The notes beneath the pieces were generated by a model. That model searched no databases. It worked only from the letters and a program-made list of their open reading frames with translations, and had not been told where the DNA came from. This document shows positions 18,076-33,229 of a stretch of DNA of 64,000 nucleotides, in pieces. A program made the position numbers and the translations under genes. This stretch comes from Magnetococcales bacterium (lineage in GTDB: Bacteria; Pseudomonadota; Magnetococcia; Magnetococcales; UBA8363), in the NCBI GenBank assembly GCA_015228815.1, contig JADGCV010000009.1:1-64000 (forward strand), given 5' to 3'. Position 1 is the first letter of the stretch; the number at the start of each line of letters is the position of its first letter.

Positions 18076-21000
18076 ATGTTTAAATTATTGCAAAACAAAT
18101 GGCTTGTCGCAATTCTCATCATCCTTGGCATCACCGTGGCGGGGGCCTTTTTGTTGATGGTTCCCCAGACTGCGATGGAGCGCAAGGGGATCGCCCTGGA
18201 CCGCGACAAGCTTCCGGCGCGACAAAAACAGGCGGACACCGGAAAGAAGGAACCACCGGTGCAGGTGGAGGCCGCCAAACGGGAACCGGTGGGTGGGGTG
18301 ACCCAGCTCAAGGGGCTGGCTTTTGCCGAATTCGAAAAGGTCAAACGGGTCCTCGAAGAAGGGAGCCCGGTCTTCCAGGGCGACCGGATCGTCACCGGGA
18401 GCAAGGCGCGCCTGATCCTCAAGATGAAGGATGATGCGGTCATCGCCCTGGGCGAGGACAGCGAGTTTCTTGTTCAGCACTATACCTTCAAGGTCCGTCC
18501 CGACAATACGGTCGGCGAGGAGGATGGCAACAAGGGCCAGGTGGAACTGACCCGGGGTCTGGCCAAGTTCACCTCGGGGCGGCTGGGGCAGATGAAGAAC
18601 AAACCGTTCCACCTGGTGACGCCGGTGGCGACGATGGGGGTTCGCGGCACCCAGGGGTTCATCCGGTTGAACGGCAGCGGTGCCGACATGGCCATCGAGG
18701 TCGTCTCCCTGAAGGACGAGGTCCTTGTATGGATGGAGGAGCCTGCGAAAAAATTAAGTTCCTCTTCAGGAGAGATCCACTTTTTGACCGCCCTGATCGG
18801 CGAAGCGTTTGCCGCGGATCTTGGCCGGGAGCCGGCGACGGTCAAGACGAATCAGATGTTGTCGGGATCGCCGACCTCCCCCCCCGTGATTACCGATGCC
18901 CCCAAGGAAAAATTGAGTGATGCCCACACGAGTACCGCGGTGAAAAAGCTGCCGGAAGGGGCCCGGAAGGACCTGGCCCAGAAAGCGGCCCAATCCCTGG
19001 TGGACAAGGGGGCGGCGGCCAATGTCGAAGAGGCGGCCAAACTCCTGGAACAAACGCCCCAGGCCCTGGAACAATTGGTCGAAGAGGCGGAAGAACACCT
19101 CATGGAGGAGACCCGGGCCGATGTGGAAAAACAATTGGAAAAAGACGAAAAGCTGAAAGAGATCGATGCGGACCTCAAGAAGGCCGAGGAGGGTGGTGAC
19201 ACGGCAAAGCTCACTGAATTGAACGAAAAGAAACAGGCATTGCTTGCCGACTCCCATCCCATCGACACGGTCATCGATGGGGTCGATCAAAAGAAATCGG
19301 CGGACGGGGCGATCGAAAAGGTGATTCCCAAGGTTGAAAGTTTTGCCGAGGAGGTGACCAAGGCGGTCGCAGAAGGAAAAAACCTTCAGGAAGCGCTCGA
19401 AGGGAAGGCACAAAACTATCGGGAAGATGTCAAGAGCAAGGCCAAGGCGCTGGGCATCGAGGATTACGAAGGGGCAAAACGGACTGGAGAGAAAATACGG
19501 GAAGAGGTCAAGGACCAGATTCCGGGACAGCCTGCTCCGGGTGAAAAAACGTTATCGCCCCTGGGGACGCAACCCCTGCCGGGAGAAACGCGACCTTCTT
19601 CTGCGGCAACGGATGTAGAGGGAACGGTCTCCGGGACTTCGGAAGGGGCTTCGACCGATGCAGCCGCCAAGGATGCGGGTGGGACAGCAGCGGAAGGGAC
19701 CAAGGATGCCGCCAAGGGGAGCACCACCGCCACCGATGCGAAAGCCGGAAGTGCTGTACGGGATCCCAACAGTGTTTTTGCAGACACCGCCCGAACCGCC
19801 GCCACCCCGACCACAACCACGACGGGAACGACGTCATCCACCACGTCCGATTCGAACAAGACGACTTTTTCTCCCACTCCTATTTCCTTCAACAAACCAC
19901 CGGTCATGGCGGCCCAGACGTTTTCGGTGGACGAAAACAAACCCCTCAACACGATCGTCGGAACCCTGGCGGCGACCGACCCCAATACAGGCAATGTCCT
20001 GAGTTTCACCCTGACACCGACGGACGTGTTCACGGTGGATGCCGCAACCGGGGTGATCACCACGGTGGCACCCCTCGATTATGAAAAAACCGCCTCCTAC
20101 ACCCTGACCGCCACGGTGACCGACAACGTTCCCGACAATACCAAGGACAAGAAGATCACCACCATCACTGCGGCGATTACGATCAATGTAAAAAATATCA
20201 ATGAGACTCCGACAATCGTCGCTCCAGGGACGCTGCTTGTCGATGAGGATGGAACGCTCAAGGTGTCGGGCATCACCGTTGCCGATCCCGACACCCTCGT
20301 TGCCGTGACGACGGGGGTGGAACCGGGGGATTTGTCGGTAAAACTTGAAGTAGTCCATGGACTTATCACCCTGACCGATACCTCTGGAGTCACAATCGTC
20401 GCCTCTGGGGCCAATAATTTAACAATGAAAGGAAAGCTTCCTTCCCTGAATAATGCTCTAGGAAAACTCACCTATACACCAAAGAAGGACTATAACGGAA
20501 GTGATGTTCTGTATGTGGATGTTGATGACCTTGGAACTCAAGGCAGTGGGACAGCGAAGTCCACATCCACCCAGATAGCAATTACTGTGCAACCAATCAA
20601 TGATGAGCCAAAGTTTAACAATGCCGATCTAAAATTTACCGTCGATGAAAACATGCCGGTGGGAACACAGGTTGGTAATAATATTTTCGCCTCCGACGTT
20701 GAGCTTGATACTATTACCTATTCCATCACCAAAGGCAATTTGGGCAATGCCTTTGCCATCGAACCAGACACAGGCAAAATCACCGTAGCAGCTAAGATCG
20801 ATTTTGAAGTCAATCCGATCTATACTCTGGAAATAGTAGCAAAAGATGCCGGTTTAGCATCACAACAGACAGGTGCCATTCCCGCCAAGGTGGTAATCGA
20901 AGTCAATAATGTCAACGAACCGCCCCGCTTCAAGGATCTTCCCAACGCCATCGGCGCCCTGGAGGACACGATCAAGGCGTTATCCGAGATCCAGATCGAC

Positions 21001-24000
21001 GATCCCGACCTGACCGCATCCAGTACCGAAACTTTGAAACTGACCCTTTCCGTCGAACACGGGACCCTTTCGACCCGTTCCGACCACAGCCTGGCGGAAA
21101 AGACCCTGACCCTGACCAATACTCTGGCCAATTTGCGCAAGGAATTGGAACGGTTGAACTATCGGGGCGAGAACAACTATGCCGGGGTCGATACCCTGAC
21201 CCTGAAACTGGATGACCAGGGCAACATTGGTTCCGGAACGACGATTCCCGCCACCGGGACCGTGGCCATTTCCATCGTTGGAGTCAATGATGTCCCCACG
21301 ATCACCCCGATCACCGATGTGATCATCGACGAGGACAAATCGAAATCATTTTCCTTCCAGGTGGCCGACCTGGACACCCCTGCCAGTGATCTTCTGGTCA
21401 GCGTTGCGTCGTCCAACACCGACCTGTTTCCCACGGCCAATCTGGTCCTGTCGGGGACCAGTACCGATCGGACCCTGACGGCGACGCCGGCGCTCAACCG
21501 TTTTGGCGACGCGGTCATCACCTTGACCGTTTCCGACAAGAACGATGCCACCCAGACGAAGACCTCAAGTTTCAAGGTGACGGTGCGGGCGGTGGCGGAC
21601 AAGCCGGTGATTACCGCGGCCACGACCAGCGAGGATGTGCAAACCACCTCGGGACTGGTACTGGCCCGCGCCGGGGTCGATGGCGACGAGGTGACCCATT
21701 TTCAGATCAAGAACATTGTCAACGGAGCGGTCTACAAAAAGGATGGGGTGACGATTGTCAATGAAGGCGAGTTCATCACCGTCGCGGAGGGAACCGCGGG
21801 ATTGAAATTCACCCCTGGGACGAATCTTTATACCGTCAGCGGCAGCGTTGTCTTTGGATTCGATGTATTTGGCGCCACGGCGGCGGCGGATACGAACGTT
21901 GGTCCCGAAAAAGCGACCGCGACCATTGCGGTCACCAGCGTCAACGATGCGCCGGTGATCACCAAACCGGCCAACGCGACCGTCCTTGAGGACACAGCGC
22001 TTGTCATTACCGGTTTGAGCGTTGCCGATGTCGATGCGGGAACCGCTTCCCTGCAAGTGGTTCTGTCGGCTCTGGACGGTACCGTGACCCTGGCCAAGAC
22101 CGATGGCATCTCCATCGAATCGGGGACCAACGACAGCGCAGCGATCACCTTTTCCGGTCCCGTGACCGCCATCAACGGGGCGTTGTCGGGGATGAGCTAT
22201 CGGGGGGACACCTCTTTTTCCGGCAGCGACACACTGACCCTCAAAGTGAATGACCAGGGCAATACCGGCGCGGTCACCACCCCCCTGACCGATGAAAAAA
22301 CGGTGACGATCACCGTGACGGCGGTCAACGATGCGCCGGTGATCACCCGGGGAATCACGACATCCCAGACCTATACCGAAGGCGACGCGGTGGGCAACAA
22401 CACGGCCATGGTCATTGATGAGGCCATCGTGATCGAGGATGTCGATGATGCCGACCTGAGCGGCGCCACCCTCACCATTGCCACGGGGAAAGATGGAACC
22501 AAGGATCAACTCGATGTCACCGCCACCGAGACGATCGCCAAGAGTTGGAATGCGACCACGGGCGTTCTGACGTTGACCGGCAGTGCGACGGTCGCCGATT
22601 ACCAGGCGCTTCTGCGCCAGGTGACCTTTACTTCGACGAGCGACGATCCAAAAGCGGGAACCCGGACGGTAACGATCAAGGTCAACGATGGTGATCTTGA
22701 CAGTGCCTTGGCCAGTTATTCCATTGTCGTCGTTGCCGTCAACGATGCCCCCTCCATGACCGCCGGCAGCACGCTTAACTATACCGAGAACGATGCCGCG
22801 ACCGTCGTCGAATCCTCGTTGACCGTCACCGACCTGGACAATGCCTCCCTGACGGGAGCGAGCGCCACCATTTCGAGCGGCTATCAGAACGACACCAGCG
22901 ACAGCGACACCCTGGCTTTCGCGGACAGTGGTGGTATCACCGGTTCCTGGGACGCCACGACCGGGGTCCTGACCTTGACGGGCAGCGCCACCAAGGAAGC
23001 CTATGCCGCGGCCTTGAAAACGGTCACCTTTGTCCACACGGGGGACAACCCCACCACCGATAACCGAACCATCTCCTTTGTCGTCAGCGACGGCAGCGCC
23101 TCTTCGACGGCGGTCACAAGTACCGTGGCGATGACCGCGGTCAACGATGTTCCGGTGGTGACCGCCACGGCGAGCATTTCGGTCAACGAGGGAATCGATG
23201 CGGTGCAGAACACCGCCATGGTGATCGACGGTTCGATCACCGTGAAAGATGCGGAAAGCGACACCATCACTGCCGCGACGATCACCATCGGCACCAATTA
23301 TGTCAACGATGAGGATGTCCTGATCTTCCCTGCCACCCTGGGCAACATCCAGGCAGACACGACGAACGGCAGCGATAGCGGCTACAGCGGTTGGAATGCG
23401 ACCTCGGGCACCCTGAAACTGACCGGTTCCGGGACCGTTGCCGAATACCAGGCCGCCTTGCGGACCATCAAATACCACAACCTGGACAGCGATATTCCCA
23501 CCGCCTCGACCCGCGGCATTTCCTTCCAGGTTACCGATACCGGACAAAGCCTTGCCGCCACCGCCCAGGTAACGATGGTTCCCCAGAACGATTCACCCAC
23601 TCTGGTCCAGGGATCGGCACTCCTTCCGAGCTACACCGAAGACAGCCCCACCAGCAAGCATGCCGAGCTTATCGATAACGGCATCGTCCTGGCCGATGTC
23701 GATGACACCAACATTGAAGGGGCGACGGTGACGATCTCCGCCACCTATGACAGTGGCAAGGATCTTCTTGCCTTCGACAGCGCCTTCACCAGCAGCACCA
23801 TTACCGGCACGTTCAACGCGACCACAGGCGTGTTTACCCTGGCGGGATCCGACACCGTAGCCAATTATCAAACCGCGTTGCGGGCAGTCACTTATGCCAA
23901 TTCGAGCGATCATCCCACCGCCGGATCGCGGACGATTACCTTTGCGATTTCCGATGGTTCTCTTTCCAGCAACAGCACGAGCGTCACTTTTGATGCCACC

Positions 24001-26460
24001 GCCGTCAACGACGCGCCGATCGTGGTTTCAGGTGGAACACGGGCCTATACCGAAAATGATGCCGCAACCCCTATCGATACCGCCATTACCGTATCCGATC
24101 ATGAAGGGGATGGTCTGACCGGAGCCACGGTGAAAATCACCGGCAATTATGACAGCGATGAAGATGTTTTGGCCTTTGCCACCATCGGTTCGATTTCCGG
24201 CTCCTGGAATGCGATCGACGGTACCTTGACCTTGAGCGGTTCGGGTACGACCAGTGAATACCAGGCGGCGTTGCGCACGGTGACCTATATCAATTATTCC
24301 GGCAGCGCCACCAACGACAATCCGACCGCCGGCAATCGGACGGTTTCCTTTGCCGTGACTGAGACAACGCCTACCGTGAATGGCACTTCGGCTTTGACGA
24401 GCACCGCCGCTACGGCTACCGTCACCGTCGTTGCCGTCAACGACCCTCCCGTTCTGACTGCCCCGACCAGCACGGATCCATTCACAGAGGACAGTACTTC
24501 TTTTGTTCTCATCGACAAGAACAACCAGTTTATCATCATTGACGCGGAATCGAATCAGATACAGGGGGCGACGATCGCCATTTCCGGCATTCCCACAACG
24601 ACAGGGGATGGTCCTGCCGACGAATTGCAATTTACGACCCAGAATGGCATTACCGGAACCTGGAATGGTGGAACCAAGACACTGACTTTGTCGGGAACAG
24701 CCTCCCTGGGAGACTATCAGACGGCCCTTCGTTCGGTTACCTATTACAACAACAGCCAGGATCCGGGTCAGGGAATCCGGACCCTGACCTGGACCGTGAC
24801 CGATGCGGGAGGTGGCAGCGCCACGAGCATTTCAAAAACAAGCTCCCTGACAGTCAATGCAGTCAATGGGGTGCCACAGTTGTCCGGTGGAAGTGCTTCA
24901 CCTTTGATCTTTACCGAAAACGCTGCTGCAACAGTCATTGATACCGGTGTCACCGTCACCGACGAGGAAAACAACAAGATCTATGGCGCTACGATCACGA
25001 TCAGCACCAATTTCCATGCCACTGATGTCGGAGGCAATACGGAAGATACCCTTTCCTATACTGGCAATGGTACCAATATCAATGCAGGAGTTTGGAATTC
25101 AACAACAGGGGTATTGACTCTGAGCACTACTACCGGCCAAACCGCTACCCTGGCCGATTACATGGCCGCCTTCGATAATGTCAAGTATGTCAACAGCAGT
25201 AATGCGCCACACGCCGGAGTTGATAACAAGCGCACCGTTACCTGGAGCGTTACGGACTCCGAAGGAGCGACAAGTTCAGTTGGGACGACAAGTCAAATCC
25301 AAATAACAGCGGTCAATGATGCCCCCACCGACATCCAGATCAGCAACAATGGCCTCTATGCAGCGTCGCCCGTCGGTACCGTCATCGGTTCTCTGACCGT
25401 CACCGACCCCGATCTTTCCACCGACACCTATACCTTTTCCTTGACAAGCGGTACGACCGAGTTTTCCCTGGCCAATGGCAAGGATACCTCCATTTATACC
25501 TCGGGCAATCTGACGGTCAATCTGGCCACACTCAGCACCACGGGAGGCAATGGCAGCGGCGTCTACACCGTAAGTGTGCAAGTAACCGACAGTGGTGGAT
25601 TAACCCTTTCTACTCCAAAAACCCTGAACATCACCGTCACATCGGCTCCGTTCGATAGCGGCAACATGACCCCAGTCGGCGACGCCACCGCGGTCGCCAC
25701 GATTGTTTCCACTGCCAAGACCCTGTTCAATACCGTAGTGACCAATCTCGTTGGAACAACGCCAACAAGCGTCAGTCTGACCAACGACAACCTGCGCACC
25801 ATGATCCTGGCCAAGCTCAACCAGCAGTTGACCGGAAGCACTTCGGGCCTGGAACATATCGGGCAGATCATCGACAGGATGGGGGTCTCGGTCACATCCG
25901 ACCCAAAAATCGAGGTCACCATGCGCATCAAGGCATTGAGTACCATTCATTCCCGCCTTCCGGCCTCGGTGCAGACAAGTTTCTGGGGCCTTGTGGATAC
26001 CATCACCCCGTATGGCGGGAGCTATACGTTTGACATGAAACTGACCGTCGTTCCGGTCGTCAGCGGTACGACGATCACCTACAACAACTCCAGTTCCAAA
26101 CTGGAAATCCTTCATCTGAAAATGCTGCCGGATGTTTTATCGCCCACGGTTCCCTATTCCATTGCCCTGGATACACTGGTTTCCAGTTACAACAGCGTCC
26201 TGACCAATCTGAAAACTGATGGAACCCTGGCTTTTTTCCTTGGAGGGGGCGTTCCCCGGCATATCGTCGAGGCCGCCGTTGGCAGCGTTACGGGTGACAC
26301 GGAATACAATGCGATGAAGGCTCAAGGGGTTTGGACGACCGCAACAGGCAATTCAACATCGGCGCCCAATTCTTCTTCGGGGGTACGTCTGGACTATTTC
26401 CTGCCGGGCAACATCAGTGGCATCACCTTCAACACGGGAAACATTACCTTGTCTCCGTAA
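18076..26460 (+). CDS. Giant membrane-anchored FecR-domain / cadherin-like repeat protein
   Basis: A 2794-residue protein. An uncleaved N-terminal helix (WLVAILIILGITVAGAFLLM, residues 9-28) is followed by a FecR domain at about 73-205 (GDRIVTGSKARLILKMKDDA, VATMGVRGTQGFIRL), a Glu/Lys-rich helical region (about 285-480), a Thr/Ala/Pro linker, and about 14 cadherin-like or VCBS-like units from about residue 605 to 2520 with joints of the type AVNDAP or VNEPP. At least seven later units share YTEN, a DxLAF strand, W(N/D)ATTG and LTLTGS. The last 270 residues are a unique non-repetitive domain. Such proteins are surface adhesins or matrix scaffolds; FecR domains may sense or bind envelope sugars. 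No RTX nonapeptides or type I secretion genes are seen nearby. Confidence 0.85.
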   Translation: MFKLLQNKWLVAILIILGITVAGAFLLMVPQTAMERKGIALDRDKLPARQKQADTGKKEPPVQVEAAKREPVGGVTQLKGLAFAEFEKVKRVLEEGSPVFQGDRIVTGSKARLILKMKDDAVIALGEDSEFLVQHYTFKVRPDNTVGEEDGNKGQVELTRGLAKFTSGRLGQMKNKPFHLVTPVATMGVRGTQGFIRLNGSGADMAIEVVSLKDEVLVWMEEPAKKLSSSSGEIHFLTALIGEAFAADLGREPATVKTNQMLSGSPTSPPVITDAPKEKLSDAHTSTAVKKLPEGARKDLAQKAAQSLVDKGAAANVEEAAKLLEQTPQALEQLVEEAEEHLMEETRADVEKQLEKDEKLKEIDADLKKAEEGGDTAKLTELNEKKQALLADSHPIDTVIDGVDQKKSADGAIEKVIPKVESFAEEVTKAVAEGKNLQEALEGKAQNYREDVKSKAKALGIEDYEGAKRTGEKIREEVKDQIPGQPAPGEKTLSPLGTQPLPGETRPSSAATDVEGTVSGTSEGASTDAAAKDAGGTAAEGTKDAAKGSTTATDAKAGSAVRDPNSVFADTARTAATPTTTTTGTTSSTTSDSNKTTFSPTPISFNKPPVMAAQTFSVDENKPLNTIVGTLAATDPNTGNVLSFTLTPTDVFTVDAATGVITTVAPLDYEKTASYTLTATVTDNVPDNTKDKKITTITAAITINVKNINETPTIVAPGTLLVDEDGTLKVSGITVADPDTLVAVTTGVEPGDLSVKLEVVHGLITLTDTSGVTIVASGANNLTMKGKLPSLNNALGKLTYTPKKDYNGSDVLYVDVDDLGTQGSGTAKSTSTQIAITVQPINDEPKFNNADLKFTVDENMPVGTQVGNNIFASDVELDTITYSITKGNLGNAFAIEPDTGKITVAAKIDFEVNPIYTLEIVAKDAGLASQQTGAIPAKVVIEVNNVNEPPRFKDLPNAIGALEDTIKALSEIQIDDPDLTASSTETLKLTLSVEHGTLSTRSDHSLAEKTLTLTNTLANLRKELERLNYRGENNYAGVDTLTLKLDDQGNIGSGTTIPATGTVAISIVGVNDVPTITPITDVIIDEDKSKSFSFQVADLDTPASDLLVSVASSNTDLFPTANLVLSGTSTDRTLTATPALNRFGDAVITLTVSDKNDATQTKTSSFKVTVRAVADKPVITAATTSEDVQTTSGLVLARAGVDGDEVTHFQIKNIVNGAVYKKDGVTIVNEGEFITVAEGTAGLKFTPGTNLYTVSGSVVFGFDVFGATAAADTNVGPEKATATIAVTSVNDAPVITKPANATVLEDTALVITGLSVADVDAGTASLQVVLSALDGTVTLAKTDGISIESGTNDSAAITFSGPVTAINGALSGMSYRGDTSFSGSDTLTLKVNDQGNTGAVTTPLTDEKTVTITVTAVNDAPVITRGITTSQTYTEGDAVGNNTAMVIDEAIVIEDVDDADLSGATLTIATGKDGTKDQLDVTATETIAKSWNATTGVLTLTGSATVADYQALLRQVTFTSTSDDPKAGTRTVTIKVNDGDLDSALASYSIVVVAVNDAPSMTAGSTLNYTENDAATVVESSLTVTDLDNASLTGASATISSGYQNDTSDSDTLAFADSGGITGSWDATTGVLTLTGSATKEAYAAALKTVTFVHTGDNPTTDNRTISFVVSDGSASSTAVTSTVAMTAVNDVPVVTATASISVNEGIDAVQNTAMVIDGSITVKDAESDTITAATITIGTNYVNDEDVLIFPATLGNIQADTTNGSDSGYSGWNATSGTLKLTGSGTVAEYQAALRTIKYHNLDSDIPTASTRGISFQVTDTGQSLAATAQVTMVPQNDSPTLVQGSALLPSYTEDSPTSKHAELIDNGIVLADVDDTNIEGATVTISATYDSGKDLLAFDSAFTSSTITGTFNATTGVFTLAGSDTVANYQTALRAVTYANSSDHPTAGSRTITFAISDGSLSSNSTSVTFDATAVNDAPIVVSGGTRAYTENDAATPIDTAITVSDHEGDGLTGATVKITGNYDSDEDVLAFATIGSISGSWNAIDGTLTLSGSGTTSEYQAALRTVTYINYSGSATNDNPTAGNRTVSFAVTETTPTVNGTSALTSTAATATVTVVAVNDPPVLTAPTSTDPFTEDSTSFVLIDKNNQFIIIDAESNQIQGATIAISGIPTTTGDGPADELQFTTQNGITGTWNGGTKTLTLSGTASLGDYQTALRSVTYYNNSQDPGQGIRTLTWTVTDAGGGSATSISKTSSLTVNAVNGVPQLSGGSASPLIFTENAAATVIDTGVTVTDEENNKIYGATITISTNFHATDVGGNTEDTLSYTGNGTNINAGVWNSTTGVLTLSTTTGQTATLADYMAAFDNVKYVNSSNAPHAGVDNKRTVTWSVTDSEGATSSVGTTSQIQITAVNDAPTDIQISNNGLYAASPVGTVIGSLTVTDPDLSTDTYTFSLTSGTTEFSLANGKDTSIYTSGNLTVNLATLSTTGGNGSGVYTVSVQVTDSGGLTLSTPKTLNITVTSAPFDSGNMTPVGDATAVATIVSTAKTLFNTVVTNLVGTTPTSVSLTNDNLRTMILAKLNQQLTGSTSGLEHIGQIIDRMGVSVTSDPKIEVTMRIKALSTIHSRLPASVQTSFWGLVDTITPYGGSYTFDMKLTVVPVVSGTTITYNNSSSKLEILHLKMLPDVLSPTVPYSIALDTLVSSYNSVLTNLKTDGTLAFFLGGGVPRHIVEAAVGSVTGDTEYNAMKAQGVWTTATGNSTSAPNSSSGVRLDYFLPGNISGITFNTGNITLSP

Positions 26461-26643
26461 GTGTGTATTGTGGTTTTTTTTCAGTTTGCCGTAACGAAGA
26501 AAACAGCGAATGGCGGGTGCTGTTCCGCCTCGGGTGGAATTCGACAAGTGCCTTTTTTTGATAAACTGGATACATTGCCATCAAATGGAGGAACTGATCA
26601 TGGGTACGATGAAAAGTGTCCAAGTTATTTTTGCCAGACTCCT

Positions 26644-27264
26644 TTAGATCGGCTCCACCATTCTCCTGGCCGCTTCCATAAGAAAGCCTGATCTTGTCAT
26701 GCCTATTTCCCGGGCAGTCACATCGATGCGTTGCAATAGAGTTTCTGCCATGGAAACGTTGACCGTTACCCATTTTGCCGGTACATCCACGCGCACCAAG
26801 GCCCGCAACACCTCATCGATTTCTCGGTCATGCCCAATTGCGCTCAACAGTGATGGGGCAGGGATATCTTCGCCATCTTTTACCATGGCTCCAATATGCA
26901 TCGCCAACGCTTTCTCCGCATTGAGCAGCGCTTCGTCCAACGAATCTCCGCCAGACACACATCCTGGCAAGTCCGGGAAAAAACTCCCAAATCCAACTTC
27001 TCCGGCATCGTTTTCCCCTCGTTCGACGATGACGGGGTAATGTCTCACATCCATTGGATTCTCTTGGCGTATTTTTAAACCGCTTTGCCGTTCGATGGAT
27101 TTGATTGTCCCTATCGGAATGATTTTTCTGGGATGTGGAACCGTAACTTTACCTGCTCTTCCTGGATGAACAAACTGATGGTGACTCCCAGAAATATCCG
27201 ATAGCACCCAGCCGGCAACCTTCAACGCATCAATAATTTCCCGGCTGGATAAAGTATTCCCCAT
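26644..27264 (-). CDS. HicA-HicB fusion: single-chain toxin-antitoxin protein
   Basis: A 206-residue protein joining two normally separate proteins. Residues 1-66 are a HicA mRNA interferase (SSREIIDALKVAGW, GSHHQF with the catalytic His at 28 or 29, VPHPRKIIPIGTIKSI). Residues 71-206 are HicB: MDVRHYPVIVE, FPDLPGCVSGGDSLDEAL and a C-terminal ribbon-helix-helix (REIGMTRSGFLMEAARRM). No stop codon separates them; an internal ATG at residue 71, with AAGAG upstream, could still give free HicB. The frame extends to 27375, but the ATG at 27264 follows GGGGA and matches the HicA start. It sits next to tRNA-Lys, a common landing site. Confidence 0.8.
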   Translation of the reverse strand: MGNTLSSREIIDALKVAGWVLSDISGSHHQFVHPGRAGKVTVPHPRKIIPIGTIKSIERQSGLKIRQENPMDVRHYPVIVERGENDAGEVGFGSFFPDLPGCVSGGDSLDEALLNAEKALAMHIGAMVKDGEDIPAPSLLSAIGHDREIDEVLRALVRVDVPAKWVTVNVSMAETLLQRIDVTAREIGMTRSGFLMEAARRMVEPI

Positions 27265-27450
27265 GTTATCCCCGATCTCGATTCCGGTGAATGGCCATTG
27301 TTGTCCAATAGTCTGCACGTTGGGCGCACCCGCCTGCACCCCGGTGATGATGTAATTCACGTCAGCTACGGCCATGCATCATCCTGCATCCCCGCGCAAT
27401 CCAGGAAAGAAAGACGATTATTAAAATGATCGCAGGTGTTTTGTTATTTT

Positions 27451-27526
<76 letters not shown>

Positions 27527-27912
27527 AAGGATGGGGTAATGCGAAGAAGCCGGTGTGGTGTGGATTGGTGACCTGCGCGATTGTGGTTCCCGCCCATCGG
27601 CGCCTGCTGCCAGGATTATCGGGTGATGGAGGATTCAAGTCAAGTGGCAAATTGGATATCGTGGTTTTCCCTGAACGCATGACGATGAAGTCGTCCCATG
27701 GATGTTAAATTAATACATTTATATATAATATTATGGAAAATTTCATCGATCAAGTGACACATCATCATGGATGATTTCTGGGAACTGTTCATTGCGTTAT
27801 TGATCGAACCATTTGAAAGTTCATGAAATTTACATTAAAATTTGGCGGAAATTGAATTTAATCAGAATTATATGTATAATATAGTCAATTGCAAAATAAT
27901 TTCCAATCGGTC
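27527..27912. other. AT-rich intergenic region between tRNA-Lys and the diguanylate cyclase
   Basis: This 386-base gap is clearly AT-rich against its surroundings (runs such as TTTATATATAATATTATGG near 27720-27740). It holds one convincing promoter at its right end. I see no gene, terminator or insertion-sequence end. Confidence 0.5.
27852..27880 (+). promoter_or_regulatory. Sigma-70-type promoter of the CZB-GGDEF gene
   Basis: TTGAAT (27852-27857), 17 bases, TATAAT (27875-27880). The predicted transcript start near 27887 makes the TTG at 27889 an unlikely start codon and favours the ATG at 27913. Confidence 0.6.
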
Positions 27913-28899
27913 ATGGTGCGATTGCAGGAATGTCCTGGTTCCCGGGATGTGATCTATGGGATGATCCATCGAAATCATTTGGAGTCGGCAATGCTGGATG
28001 GTATCGATCTGACCGTTGTTGAATCCCGGTCCTTGATGCATCGTATCGAGGTGGCCATGGTCAGTCATGAGGAGTGGCTGGCCAGGTTGTACCGCGTTCT
28101 CATCTGCGGCGGATCCCTGGGCGAGGAGTATACCGCCAGTGATGCCCATGATCGGTGCAAATTCGGGCAATGGTTGCGCAAGATGTGTCAATACAACCCC
28201 AAGCTCGAATCCTTCCCCCTGGTCGTGGATATTGCATTCCTTCACCGACGGATGCATGAAGCGGTCCAGGATCTGCTGCGTTACCACGCCTCCCCCAATA
28301 TGGATCGGGACATTCTGGCGCGCATGTATGACGAGGTCATCGCAAAAAAAATGGCGTTTCGCTGGCTGGTGGCGGCTTTGGATCACCTGATCTGCTACCA
28401 GATTCTCCATACCGACCCCCTGACCAATACCCTGGGTCGTGAAAAACTTCTCGCCACCCTCAACAGGGAAATCGCCGATGTCGCCAAAAACCCGCAGCGC
28501 GAATCCCTGATCGCCATGGTCGATATCGATTATTTCAAAAAAATAAACGATACCTACGGCCATCTTGCCGGCGACCGTGTCCTGATCGAAGTGACGCGAT
28601 TCATCAAGGCCAACCTGCGACCGACCGATCTTGTTTTTCGTTACGGTGGCGAGGAATTTGTCCTTTTTCTTTCCAATACCTCTCTTTCCAGGGCTGGGAA
28701 TCTGCTCGATCGCCTGCGGCAACGGCTTTCCAGTTACGAGATTTCCACGACCCCGCTCTCCTTTCCCCTGACCATTACTGCCTCCTTTGGCGTTACCCGC
28801 CTGACCCCCCATGAATCGGTTCAGGATCAACTTGAACGCGCCGATGGCGCCATGTACCAGGCCAAAAAACAGGGACGTAACTGCGTCGTCGTCGTTTGA
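27913..28899 (+). CDS. CZB-domain diguanylate cyclase (DgcZ/YdeH-like)
   Basis: A 328-residue soluble enzyme. The N-terminal half holds a chemoreceptor zinc-binding (CZB) domain (HEEWLARLYRVL, then DAHDRCKFGQWL with the His and Cys zinc ligands). The C-terminal half is a GGDEF domain: TDPLTNTLGREKLL, DIDYFKKINDTYGHLAGD and the active-site signature YGGEEF. It is predicted to make cyclic di-GMP, with activity set by zinc as in E. coli DgcZ. The frame can begin at TTG 27889, but the promoter position favours ATG 27913; the ATG at 27961 is also possible. No I-site RxxD is obvious just before GGEEF. Confidence 0.85.
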   Translation: MVRLQECPGSRDVIYGMIHRNHLESAMLDGIDLTVVESRSLMHRIEVAMVSHEEWLARLYRVLICGGSLGEEYTASDAHDRCKFGQWLRKMCQYNPKLESFPLVVDIAFLHRRMHEAVQDLLRYHASPNMDRDILARMYDEVIAKKMAFRWLVAALDHLICYQILHTDPLTNTLGREKLLATLNREIADVAKNPQRESLIAMVDIDYFKKINDTYGHLAGDRVLIEVTRFIKANLRPTDLVFRYGGEEFVLFLSNTSLSRAGNLLDRLRQRLSSYEISTTPLSFPLTITASFGVTRLTPHESVQDQLERADGAMYQAKKQGRNCVVVV

Positions 28900-28917
28900 T
28901 GCCACCTCCCATCCATA

Positions 28918-29042
28918 CTGCCCAGGTACCTCCCCGGTTTGGGACTATTGAAAGAAAAAAGGGGTCTGGGGGCAATCCCCCAAACCCCCAGACCCCTTTT
29001 TTCTTTCAATAATCCTTGGCCCTGGGGGTACTTGGGCCGTTA
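28918..29042. repeat. Palindromic repeat with both arms (copy R3)
   Basis: The most complete short copy. Left arm ACTGCCCAGGTACCTCCCC, core ATTGAAAGAAAAAAGGGG, centre TCTGGGGGCAATCCCCCA, mirror core CCCCTTTTTTCTTTCAATAA, and right arm AATCCTTGGCCCTG then GGTACTTGGGCCGT. Arms and cores form one long inverted repeat. Lies between the diguanylate cyclase and GNAT genes. Confidence 0.85.
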
Positions 29043-29179
29043 CGAATATTCCATTCATTTTTAACTTGCAGATATTCAGTTGGTCTGCCATTATTAAAAG
29101 CGTCGAGGATCGCCTATATGGTCCTATATTGAATCATTGAATCGCATCATATCATCAATCGTGATCATTGGAAAAAAAC

Positions 29180-29692
29180 ATGGCGCAACCATCCGGAAAA
29201 CTGACCATGAAGGGAGGATTGTCGCTGCGTTTCGCCGGGGCGGGTGACGAACATTTTTTGCTGGACATGTTCAAGGCGGCGCGTCCCTGGCTGGCCATGG
29301 CTTCTTCCGATGCCGACCTGGTGCAACACCTCTACGAGGAACAAAAACGGATCACCCGCATCGGCAACGAGACGGTTTATCCCGAACATCTGGACTTCAT
29401 CATCGAAAAACTGGGCCAGGATGTCGGGCACATGGTGGTCGATCTTTCCTCCGACCATTGGCGTCTGAGCCAACTGGAAATCCATCCCCAGGGGCAAGGA
29501 AAGGGGATCGGCTCCGATGCCGTCTTGAGCATCATGTCGGCGGCGGGAAATGCCCGGGTGCCGCTGACCGTCGCCACTCCTGTGGTGCTGTCACGGGTTG
29601 TCGGGTTCTATCGAAAATTGGGTTTCGCGGTGCGTGCCCTGGTTCCACCCATGGTGGAATTGATCTGGATTCCACAATCCATGCGGAAGTAA
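29180..29692 (+). CDS. GNAT family N-acetyltransferase
   Basis: A 170-residue protein with a GNAT fold: LRFAGAGDEHFLLDMFKAAR at the start, the strand and acetyl-CoA loop LSQLEIHPQGQGKGIGSDA (Q/R-x-x-G-x-G/A type) and the final VVGFYRKLGFAVRA. Substrate unknown. The ATG at 29180 is chosen over TTG 29168. It faces the phage-tail-collar cluster across a shared hairpin; GNAT genes of this kind often accompany microcystin-dependent-protein (MdpB) style collar genes, which is family knowledge rather than proof here. Confidence 0.8.
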   Translation: MAQPSGKLTMKGGLSLRFAGAGDEHFLLDMFKAARPWLAMASSDADLVQHLYEEQKRITRIGNETVYPEHLDFIIEKLGQDVGHMVVDLSSDHWRLSQLEIHPQGQGKGIGSDAVLSIMSAAGNARVPLTVATPVVLSRVVGFYRKLGFAVRALVPPMVELIWIPQSMRK

Positions 29693-29819
29693 TCAACAGA
29701 CGATTGCGGTGATCGAATCCCTGAGGGGTCTTCCTTTTGAAAATCAAGAGGGATGATGCTTCGGAGGAACAAAGTGAATCAAGGAAATGAATACTTCGGA
29801 GCCCGGTTCCAGGTGCAAA

Positions 29820-29844
29820 CCGGGAAGGGAAAATCCCTTCCCGG
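29820..29844. terminator. Bidirectional hairpin between convergent genes
   Basis: CCGGGAAGGGA (29820-29830) pairs perfectly with TCCCTTCCCGG (29834-29844) with a three-base loop. It lies between the GNAT gene (+) and the repeat protein gene (-), with ATTTGTGG on one side and TTTGCACC on the other. Confidence 0.6.
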
Positions 29845-29876
29845 ATTTGTGGGAAACAGTTATTTGAAAATAACCA

Positions 29877-30833
29877 TCAGATAAGATTGTACTGCATTGT
29901 TTGAATCGTATTGGTGCTGGTATTGTCGGTCCAACCGAGGCTGAGCGCCGTGGAAACGGCACCGCTTGTCGGATCGGTGACCTGAATGGTATTGATCGAT
30001 GGCCCACCGACCATGCCATTGGTGATGCTGATCGGGGTGATGCCACCGTTGAATCTCCAGACACCATCCAAACCCATCGTGATCGTACTCAGACACAATC
30101 CCTTTTGGCTGTCGTTCCAGGCAACATATCCATTTTTCAGATCGGGCATGAGTGTCAGGCTCGGCCCGTAGAGACTTGACGCCCCGGAAAGGGTGACGGC
30201 AGAGGAAATATTAAAATTGAATCCTCCCTGCGGATCATAGGCCATCTTCAAGGTGCCGTCGGTGTTGGTCCAGAGAAGGATATTGGACAAGCCACACGCT
30301 TCGATGACCGGGCTTCCCTTGCAGGAAGCGGAAAGTGCGGTGATCGTCGATGGGGTGCCGGAACCCGGGGTGCAAGGGATCGCCGCCCAGGAGATCGATT
30401 GTGTCTTCCCATCTTGCCAGGCAACAACATAATACAATTGGCCGCCGATGAGTTTAAGATCGGCGCTCGGCCCCCCGGTCGGTTGCGATCCGGTGATGGA
30501 GCTTTCGAGACTGGTGTTGAATTGCCATGATCCGGAACTGCTTTGGTTGATTTGAACATAACGCAACACACTGTCTGACCAGAAGATCATTCCCTGATTG
30601 TCCGCAGGGCCCAGAACAAGCGCGGGAGGAAAGTTGCTGGTTCGGCTGGTGGCGTAGACAGCATTGGAAAATACAAGCGTGCTGGAAACAGCAAAATTGA
30701 CCCAGGTATAGCCACTGGCACCAATCCAGGACATGAAGTTGCTGCCCCCATTCTGGATCTGAAAGCAGGGACTGGTGCTTCCGCGTTGTCCGGCAGAGAC
30801 CTGAGGATTGGGGCCGGGAGTGGTTGAACTCAT
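29877..30833 (-). CDS. Unknown protein with beta-propeller-like repeats
   Basis: A 318-residue protein of small polar residues with repeated blocks of beta-strand character: FMSWIGASGYTWVNF, GMIFWSDSVLRYVQINQ, LYYVVAWQDGKTQSISW, NILLWTNTDGTLKMAYD, GYVAWNDSQKGLCLS and SLGWTDNTSTNTIQ. The recurring aromatic-Trp-x-(D/N) strand pattern about every 45-50 residues suggests a six- or seven-bladed propeller or lectin-like fold. No signal peptide is seen. AAGGA lies seven bases before the ATG at 30833. It is last in a minus-strand cluster after a collar-domain protein and a DUF6916-like protein, so a role in the same particle or secreted structure is likely. I do not recognise the family. Confidence 0.6.
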   Translation of the reverse strand: MSSTTPGPNPQVSAGQRGSTSPCFQIQNGGSNFMSWIGASGYTWVNFAVSSTLVFSNAVYATSRTSNFPPALVLGPADNQGMIFWSDSVLRYVQINQSSSGSWQFNTSLESSITGSQPTGGPSADLKLIGGQLYYVVAWQDGKTQSISWAAIPCTPGSGTPSTITALSASCKGSPVIEACGLSNILLWTNTDGTLKMAYDPQGGFNFNISSAVTLSGASSLYGPSLTLMPDLKNGYVAWNDSQKGLCLSTITMGLDGVWRFNGGITPISITNGMVGGPSINTIQVTDPTSGAVSTALSLGWTDNTSTNTIQTMQYNLI

Positions 30834-30916
30834 GATCGATTCCTTACTTGGGGGTCCTTGAAAACGGTCCATTTCAGACGAGCGTGGCATCGACCGTCCT
30901 TATCGCGTATGCCGAA

Positions 30917-31237
30917 CTAATTGAAATGAACCTGAAAAGCCGCCTCCTTGGTGTCATCCACATGTCCTGGATGAATCCGTACAACATGGACCGGACCGAT
31001 ACGATCATTCGAATCCAAGGTCAGGGTGTAGTGTCCCGATTCGAAGGCACAAGGACCCGAAACCAGAAGATTGACCGTGAAACCTTCCCGTGGGGAATGG
31101 GGTTTGGTCGCCTTGGGTTTGGCAATGACCGAACGAATCGTGGCCGTCATTGTATTCCCTCCCGCATCTTCCAAAATGATTTCCTTGCCGTTCCTGGGAG
31201 CGAAATGGGTGCTTTGGATGGTTTCCAGTCTGGACAT
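30917..31237 (-). CDS. Small DUF6916-like protein of the tail-collar cluster
   Basis: A 106-residue protein (MSRLETIQSTHFAPRNGKEI). Its pattern, LETIxxxxFxPxxG at the start, a central FTVNLLVSGP strand, GHYTLTLD and a terminal AAFQVHFN, resembles the short DUF6916 family found beside MdpB-type collar proteins. GAGGAGA precedes the ATG at 31237. Function unknown. Confidence 0.6.
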   Translation of the reverse strand: MSRLETIQSTHFAPRNGKEIILEDAGGNTMTATIRSVIAKPKATKPHSPREGFTVNLLVSGPCAFESGHYTLTLDSNDRIGPVHVVRIHPGHVDDTKEAAFQVHFN

Positions 31238-31309
31238 GCCGGGTCTCCTCAATAGGGTATTTTGTACGAGTTATGCCTGAGTCGCGTGATGTTTCGGCCT
31301 TAACATCTT

Positions 31310-32026
31310 TCAATCAGGCACCGGATAATATCCCTGAAGGGCAATGATAAAATTGATCGTCAAATAAGGAGGGAGGGTGGGAAATGCGCTCGGATTGGCG
31401 CTGCCTCCTCCCGGGCCCACCGTTACGGCACCATTGGTCATGGTGCTGATGGTGGTGGAAAGGGCCGGCATGGCGGGTTGATAGGTGGATGTATCGACAA
31501 CGACGTTGGTTCCCTGGAGCGTCGCCTTGTTGGTTGGATCCACCGCCGTCGTGGTGACGGGACCGTTGGATGGGGTGGTAACGCCCGTCAGATTATAAGT
31601 TTTGCCGGCGACCGGATCGACCGCTCCGGGGCTTCCGGGGACGATGTCGGTCGTCGCCTTGGCGGTAATGGCCCCCTTTTGTGGTGTTGCCGGAAAATTG
31701 ATGGTTTGTGAACTCATGGTCGGCTGAAACGTGGCGCTGTGGGTATGAAGCGGCAAGTAGGATGCCGTGATCGTTGTTGCAGTGTTTCCTGCGGAAAGGC
31801 CAAGTTGCCGGAAATAGAATGCCTGGGTATCTACGCCGAATGGGCTTTTTCCCTTGAGGTTCGGCAAGCCAAAAGTATTCTTGCCATCGCCACCATAAAA
31901 TGTGCCAAGCAATGAAAACAATGCATTGTATTGACTGACGTTAAGGATCACTCCATCGCACAGGTGGAAGCCCGATGGAATTCTATTTGTAGGCCATGGA
32001 AGAATTGTACTCATATAACTATCCAT
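31310..32026 (-). CDS. Phage tail collar domain protein (MdpB-like)
   Basis: A 238-residue protein with a phage tail-collar domain at the N-terminus: PSGFHLCDG, LFSLLGTFYGGDGKNTFGLP, NLKGKSPFG and LPLHTHSATF are the family's classical motifs. The middle is low-complexity Thr/Pro/Ala and the end YLTINFIIALQGYYP is the usual collar C-terminus. Such stand-alone collar genes, called microcystin-dependent proteins in databases, occur outside prophages. AAGGAG lies seven bases before the ATG. It leads a minus-strand cluster of three genes, with no capsid, sheath or baseplate genes around it. Confidence 0.88.
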   Translation of the reverse strand: MDSYMSTILPWPTNRIPSGFHLCDGVILNVSQYNALFSLLGTFYGGDGKNTFGLPNLKGKSPFGVDTQAFYFRQLGLSAGNTATTITASYLPLHTHSATFQPTMSSQTINFPATPQKGAITAKATTDIVPGSPGAVDPVAGKTYNLTGVTTPSNGPVTTTAVDPTNKATLQGTNVVVDTSTYQPAMPALSTTISTMTNGAVTVGPGGGSANPSAFPTLPPYLTINFIIALQGYYPVPD

Positions 32027-32254
32027 TGCTGTTCTCCTTTGCGATCGATGTTTTCAATGAATCGTTTGTCTCGGGCTGACTTTGTGGATACTCGATGTCT
32101 TAAGACGCAATATCGGAACAATAAATATGTTAACTAATTATGAAATCTGATCATGGTTATCACATGAACGCCATGTGTTTGTCAACGGAAATTATTCATT
32201 GATGGGACCAAAATTTATATATAAATATCATATTTTCATTAAAAATCATATATC
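32027..32254. other. AT-rich gap upstream of the tail-collar gene
   Basis: The space between the collar gene start and the kor terminator is AT-rich (for example AAATTTATATATAAATATCA near 32210). Promoters for the minus-strand collar cluster are expected here, but I cannot single one out. No gene is visible. Confidence 0.4.
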
Positions 32255-32290
32255 TGAAAAAGAAAAAGCCCGAGGAGGAACCTCGGGCTT
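32255..32290 (-). terminator. Rho-independent terminator of korAB
   Basis: On the minus strand AAGCCCGAGG (from 32290 down to 32281) pairs with CCTCGGGCTT (32275-32266), closely followed by the T-rich run TTTCTTTTTC. It lies about 60 bases after the korB stop. Confidence 0.85.
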
Positions 32291-32350
32291 GAGGGGTTTA
32301 TCGGTGTAGAGGCCTGAGAGGTGAATCCCTCGAAAAATTTGCAGAGGGAA

Positions 32351-33229
32351 TCAGGGACGGTACAGATCGATGATTCGGTTGACGTCATAATCGGCGTGAC
32401 CGCCGACCCGTTGTACAATCGCTTCCATCCGCTCGTCCAGGGTGGGTCGTTCCACCTTGTAGAGCAGTCCCATGGGGGCCTGACCGCGGCTGCTGGCGTG
32501 GGCCAGGGCCATGGCGGCGCCGAGGTCGGTTACATCGTGTTCCGGTGGGATTGGTTGGACCATTTCACGGTAGGATTCCACCGTGTCCAGGTTGTTGAAG
32601 GAGGGGCATTGCGAATAAATGTTGATGTAGGCGAAGCCGCGATGTTCCAGCCCTCCCTTGATCAGGTCGGCGCACACCGATGGTTTTCCGGCGAAGCCTT
32701 GGGCCACATAGGTGGCGCCATAGGTCAACATGTACAACAGCGGGTTCATGGGGACCTCGGGGCCGCCATAGGGGGTGGTATAGGCTTTCATTTCGGGACG
32801 TGAGGTCGGGGAGTACTGTCCCTTGGTCAGGCCATAGATGCCGTTGTCGAACAGGACGTAGGTCAGATTGCTGTTTTTGCGCGCCATGTGCGGCATGTGA
32901 CCGCCGCCGATGGAAAAACCGTCGCCGTCGCCGCCCATCACCATGACCGTGAGGTCGGGACGGGCCAGTTGTGCTCCTGTCGCGACCGGGCCGGCCCGTC
33001 CGTGCAGCGTGTGCATTTTGTAGGAGTGCAAAAAATAGGGGGTTCGTGACGAACAGCCGATCCCGGAAATGCAGATCAGTTGACTTGGATCGACACCGGC
33101 CCCCGCGAGGGCGCGATAGATGGCGTTGAGAATGCCGTAATGGCCGCATCCGGGACACCAGACAACCGGAACCTCCGATTTGTAATCGGCGGGCTTCAGG
33201 TCGATTTTGTTGTATGTTCCACAGAACAT
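32351..33229 (-). CDS. korB: 2-oxoglutarate:ferredoxin oxidoreductase, beta subunit
   Basis: A 292-residue thiamine-diphosphate subunit: WCPGCGHYGILNAI with the cluster-type cysteines, ISGIGCSSRTPYF, HGRAGPVATGA, the TPP motif GGDGDGFSIGGGH, then LFDNGIYGLTKGQYSPTS. It converts 2-oxoacyl-CoA chemistry with reduced ferredoxin, either in the oxidative TCA cycle or, reversed, for CO2 fixation. The open frame reaches 33385 but AGGAGAT and family alignment place the start at 33229. Its start overlaps the korA end by 34 bases. Confidence 0.9.
   Translation of the reverse strand: MFCGTYNKIDLKPADYKSEVPVVWCPGCGHYGILNAIYRALAGAGVDPSQLICISGIGCSSRTPYFLHSYKMHTLHGRAGPVATGAQLARPDLTVMVMGGDGDGFSIGGGHMPHMARKNSNLTYVLFDNGIYGLTKGQYSPTSRPEMKAYTTPYGGPEVPMNPLLYMLTYGATYVAQGFAGKPSVCADLIKGGLEHRGFAYINIYSQCPSFNNLDTVESYREMVQPIPPEHDVTDLGAAMALAHASSRGQAPMGLLYKVERPTLDERMEAIVQRVGGHADYDVNRIIDLYRP

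What the first reader, a model, noticed from the sequence alone, without database searches (positions are those of the whole stretch)
26644..27264. HicA toxin and HicB antitoxin as one continuous chain
The HicA part runs into HicB with no stop; only four residues (QENP) separate them. A fused toxin-antitoxin would always be made one to one, defeating post-segregational killing unless the chain is cut or HicB is also made from the internal ATG at residue 71. It may have been turned into a stable regulator. A single-base error removing a stop is also possible.
Basis: seen in the sequence. Interest (0 to 1): 0.6.

Follow-up and report, generated by a model that had tools for sequence, protein, structure and literature searches.

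The report
Recently fused HicA-HicB toxin-antitoxin pair
In this Magnetococcales genome an ordinary toxin gene and its antidote gene have run together into one protein because the stop signal between them mutated; close relatives keep the two separate, so it looks like a recent private accident in a stranded gene cassette rather than a new kind of system.

Summary
Window 26644-27264 (- strand) is one uninterrupted 206-residue frame: HicA (PF07927), linker QENP, HicB with a C-terminal ribbon-helix-helix-type region (PF15919). The fusion is private to this genome. The closest homologue (same genus, 93% identical, in a prophage) reads TAG GAG AAC CCA ATG where the window reads CAA GAG AAT CCA ATG, and the next relative (68%) also has TAG. 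Two changes therefore fell in this codon on the window's branch. One removed the stop; the other weakened the hicB ribosome-binding site. A single miscalled base cannot account for both, though no reads could be checked. The cassette sits beside a fragment of a prophage repressor gene and a tRNA-Lys. Among 107 distinct hicAB pairs examined, 3 are fused, with three separate origins. In one of these, a +1 insertion fused genes that are separate in a close relative. The architecture is already described as Class 11 (Gerdes 2024, PMC10865869). Most likely this is a self-neutralised relic: the HicA catalytic histidine and fold are kept, but HicB is tethered one to one and separate HicB production is probably reduced. 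A CapRel-like defence protein is not excluded but has no specific support.

The parts
26644..27264 (-). fused hicA-hicB open reading frame, 206 aa
27076..27246 (-). HicA domain (aa 7-63), PF07927; His28 aligns with catalytic His24 of Burkholderia pseudomallei HicA
27064..27066 (-). CAA codon (Gln67) at the position of the ancestral hicA stop TAG
27061..27065 (-). weakened ribosome-binding site of hicB (AAGAG; TAGGAG in relatives)
27052..27054 (-). internal ATG (Met71), the hicB start codon in split relatives
26668..27039 (-). HicB domain (aa 76-199), PF15919, with RHH-like C-terminal part
26644..27268 (-). cassette shared with G002 (93% nucleotide identity); homology stops at both ends
27315..27372 (-). 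remnant of a phage-type XRE repressor gene, in frame with hicA (open frame from ATG 27375, 243 aa)
27451..27526 (-). tRNA-Lys (CTT), same strand, upstream of the cassette

Best explanation
An ordinary two-gene hicAB cassette (HicB with a C-terminal RHH-type DNA-binding region), of the kind carried by a prophage in the sister genome, lost the hicA stop codon by point mutation in this lineage. It is now read as one HicA-HicB chain. Shown: the stop changed from TAG to CAA on this branch, the hicB ribosome-binding site weakened with it, HicA keeps its catalytic His and (in the model) its fold, and the cassette is stranded beside prophage debris and a tRNA. Inferred: the tethered HicB masks the HicA active site, in cis or in a domain-swapped dimer, so that the chain is non-toxic. 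Because toxin and antidote are then made and removed together, the pair no longer acts as an addiction module. It is probably a drifting relic, perhaps still able to bind DNA as a HicAB complex does.
For: Nearest homologue G002 (93%) and outgroup G033 (68%) both have TAG at the position. Both base changes in the codon are on the window branch. Every other near full-length Magnetococcales homologue except one has at least one stop between the genes. That exception (G005:C219) is a separate +1-insertion fusion; its relative G004, 92% identical over HicB, has two separate genes, and its contig has 329x coverage. 3 of 107 distinct pairs are fused, and the tree needs three separate changes. Homology to G002 ends at the cassette borders, beside an XRE repressor remnant and tRNA-Lys. 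HicA His28 and Gly26 are invariant in 54 sequences. The model's HicA superposes on 6g26 HicA at 0.9-1.2 A. The hicB ribosome-binding site falls from -7.3 to -2.9 kcal/mol.
Against: Both domains are intact and hicA carries mostly silent changes (window branch 6 silent to 3 replacing in hicA, counting the 5' codons), as expected of a gene kept by selection, though these changes may predate the fusion. HicB counts are too few to test (1 silent, 3 replacing). Domain packing is not resolved (pTM 0.53), so cis-masking is inference.
Confidence: 0.68

Rival explanations
1. A working single-chain toxin-antitoxin (Class 11, CapRel-like): HicB holds HicA off in cis and releases it when a phage trigger binds or the chain is cut.
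For: Architecture equals Class 11 of PMC10865869, where a CapRel-like role is proposed. HicA catalytic residues and fold are intact. Replacing changes in hicA are fewer than neutral expectation.
Against: No fused sister: the nearest relatives are split. The fusion is recent, the linker is simply the former stop plus spacer, and the fusions found are unrelated to one another. The cassette lacks the upstream sequence of its relative.
Confidence: 0.13
2. Sequencing or assembly error, or mixed strains, hides a real stop (for example a true TAA read as CAA).
For: The genome is a 96-contig assembly and no reads were available; one miscalled base (T as C) on a TAA stop would give CAA.
Against: Two differences from the relatives' TAG lie in the codon, so an error could explain only one. 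No frame damage elsewhere in the cassette. A separate fusion on a 329x contig shows that such fusions really occur.
Confidence: 0.1
3. Still two products: HicB is also made from the internal ATG 71, giving excess free antitoxin and a functional module.
For: The ATG and a partial ribosome-binding site (AAGAG) remain, at the usual spacing.
Against: The predicted pairing with the ribosome falls from -7.3 to -2.9 kcal/mol, and the stop that would return ribosomes to this start is gone.
Confidence: 0.09

Closest known systems
Class 11 fused HicAB (Gerdes 2024, PMC10865869)
   Same: One gene; HicA domain, then HicB RNase H-like domain, then C-terminal RHH-type region; same order.
   Different: Here the fusion is private to one genome and traceable to point changes from a split pair; published Class 11 sequences were not compared residue by residue (supplement not available).
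Class 4 hicAB operons (HicB with RHH), e.g. Burkholderia pseudomallei HicAB (PDB 6g26, 4c26)
   Same: Domains, gene order, catalytic His, fold; the nearest relatives are of this split kind.
   Different: Stop between the genes lost; hicB ribosome-binding site weakened.
CapRel fused toxin-antitoxin (PMC9712102)
   Same: Toxin and its inhibitor in one chain, proposed analogue for fused HicAB.
   Different: Unrelated toxin domain; CapRel is a demonstrated defence protein, this is not.

Membership tests
HicA toxin (PF07927) | HicA domain above curated cut-off, catalytic His present | tested here: met
   67 bits vs 27; His28 aligns with BpsHicA His24 (Ala in the solved mutant); invariant in 54 rows
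HicB antitoxin (PF15919) | HicB domain above cut-off with C-terminal DNA-binding region | tested here: met
   101 bits vs 27; structure matches 6g26 HicB and 4p7d
Type II toxin-antitoxin module (hicAB, Class 4) | Two separately translated genes | tested here: not met
   Single open frame, stop replaced by CAA
Type II toxin-antitoxin module (hicAB, Class 4) | HicA toxic alone, neutralised by HicB | not testable with these tools
   Needs expression assays
Class 11 fused HicAB | One gene: HicA fused to HicB with C-terminal HTH or RHH | tested here: met
   definition
Class 11 fused HicAB | Fusion maintained as a lineage (my added criterion, not part of the published definition) | tested here: not met
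   Nearest relatives split; three fused rows need three changes on the tree
CapRel-like defence protein | Trigger-released toxin giving phage protection | not testable with these tools
   No experiment possible

The most novel reading that the evidence does not exclude
The chain is a functioning cis-inhibited HicA defence protein caught just after it formed from a split module, showing that single-chain toxin-antitoxin sensors can arise in one or two mutational steps.
Probability: 0.1. Interest if true: 0.55.

Novelty: new member of a known kind. Interest (0 to 1): 0.22.

Why it matters
Fused HicABs have been proposed as CapRel-like defence proteins. Here two of the fused genes can be traced to recent, separate mutations (a stop loss, a one-base insertion) in genomes whose near relatives keep split genes. 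Some database 'fused HicAB' entries may therefore be young accidents or relics, and a fused annotation alone should not be read as a defence system. If the chain is functional, the window and its 93% split relative make a ready natural pair for testing what fusion does.

Tried and rejected
Fusion as a conserved feature of the group: rejected, relatives are split. Single-base error as full explanation: rejected by the two changes in the codon. Integration scar: the tRNA-Lys 3' end occurs only once in the window, so no attachment-site repeat was found there. Viral contigs: protein and junction searches found no relative. G295:C43 first looked like another fusion but its HicA part is degenerate. 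First alignment for structure prediction (A2) was misaligned at the HicB N-terminus and was replaced by A3, whose rows are the split pairs read through their stops. NCBIfam gave no family above cut-off.

Full report
What is there. The - strand of the window carries one open frame, 26644-27264, of 206 aa. Pfam assigns aa 7-63 to HicA_toxin and aa 76-199 to HicB_lk_antitox, both far above cut-off. The only joint is QENP (aa 67-70) before Met71. The frame also runs in phase upstream to an ATG at 27375 through 37 codons, part of which match phage-type XRE repressor genes of relatives (the G002 gene is HTH_3). The start codon actually used is not known.

Where it comes from. The window lies in a 4.2-Mb, 96-contig assembly. 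The named relatives found with the same proteins are Magnetococcales assemblies, and the relatives include a single-contig 4.7-Mb genome of the same order, so I take the organism to be a member of the Magnetococcales (inference). The nearest homologue is G002:C146, same genus, 93% identical. Nucleotide homology covers 26644-27268 and nothing beyond, apart from a short match to the repressor gene. In G002 the pair lies directly downstream of an XRE repressor, with genes resembling phage structural and regulatory genes on the same stretch (reading them as prophage is my judgement). In the window only a fragment of that repressor remains, next to a tRNA-Lys. The cassette has been moved or its surroundings deleted.

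How the fusion arose. Window: CGC CAA GAG AAT CCA ATG. G002: CGC TAG GAG AAC CCA ATG. G033 (68%): CGG TAG GAG ATT CCC ATG. Both changes in the codon fall on the window's branch. The first makes Gln from the stop; the second breaks the AGGAG ribosome-binding site that overlaps the stop (-7.3 to -2.9 kcal/mol). G002's own hicA has an extra base near its start and would need an upstream GTG start, so the relative may be decaying too. In G005:C149 only hicB is left, at 87-89% identity.

How common. Among 107 distinct hicAB pairs taken from relatives and from a scan of the GTDB genome collection, 81 are in frame with one stop between them, 8 have two to four stops, 15 are out of frame, and 3 are fused. 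The sample favours in-frame pairs, because loci were ranked by a full-length match to the fused query, so the 3% is not a population rate. The fused ones are the window, a Magnetococcales contig of 329x coverage (L051 = G005:C219) and an Acidobacteria contig (L116). A tree of 54 pairs needs three separate changes. L051 arose by one inserted base near the end of hicA: its relative G004, 92% identical over HicB, has two separate overlapping genes, and the insertion also scrambles the last helix of HicA. So fusion is an easy and recurrent accident in this family.

Is the toxin part sound. His28 aligns with the position of catalytic His24 of B. pseudomallei HicA (Ala in the solved mutant; role of His24 as reviewed in PMC11594946). 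Gly26 and His28 are invariant in 54 sequences. The AlphaFold2 model has mean pLDDT 88, with a less certain linker (block 61-70, pLDDT 69) and pTM 0.53. Its HicA part superposes on HicA of complex 6g26 at 0.9-1.2 A, its HicB part on 6g26 and 4p7d HicB. Differences from G002 are mostly silent in hicA (dN 0.039, dS 0.60) and hicB (dN 0.016, dS 0.11). The different dS values of the two halves suggest a mosaic history. These counts cover both branches and time before the fusion, so they do not show selection on the fused state.

Mechanism. In known HicAB complexes HicB covers the HicA active site (PMC11594946). With a one-to-one tether and no free-standing toxin, the likeliest result is a chain that neutralises itself. 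Selective loss of antitoxin, the basis of addiction, is no longer possible unless the chain is cut. Whether HicB folds back on its own HicA or on that of a partner in a dimer is not shown. A defence role on the CapRel model (PMC9712102, abstract seen; proposed for fused HicABs in PMC10865869) remains possible.

Known or new. [quoted passage not shown] The window protein meets that architectural definition. What is added here is the origin: at least two fused genes are private and recent. The own genome also holds a normal split hicAB pair, 50% identical, at G000:C23, so HicA-HicB cross-talk in trans is conceivable but untested.

Noticed in passing
26520-26601: Short sequence directly after hicB with copies elsewhere in the same genome (C6 90%, C7 81%) and in G007: a dispersed intergenic repeat of unknown kind.
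   Followed up: partly
L042 (G002:C146) hicA start: One extra base near the hicA start in G002 shifts the usual ATG out of frame; a GTG start would be needed.
   Followed up: partly
L002 (G000:C23:14397-15011): Second, split hicAB pair in the same genome, 50% identical, with two in-frame stops between the genes, next to a GroEL-like gene.
   Followed up: no
18076-26460: 2794-aa protein with FecR domain and many cadherin-like repeats, convergent with the hicAB cassette.
   Followed up: no
28890-32355: Stretch absent at the matching place in G002, where the GGDEF gene (27889-28899) is directly followed by the genes matching 32355 onward.
   Followed up: no
28917-29040: Large inverted repeat, two 56-nt arms 82% complementary, 12 nt apart, just after the GGDEF gene.
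   Followed up: no
L150 3999-4409 (G005:C149): Orphan hicB, 87-89% identical to the window's, with no hicA upstream.
   Followed up: partly
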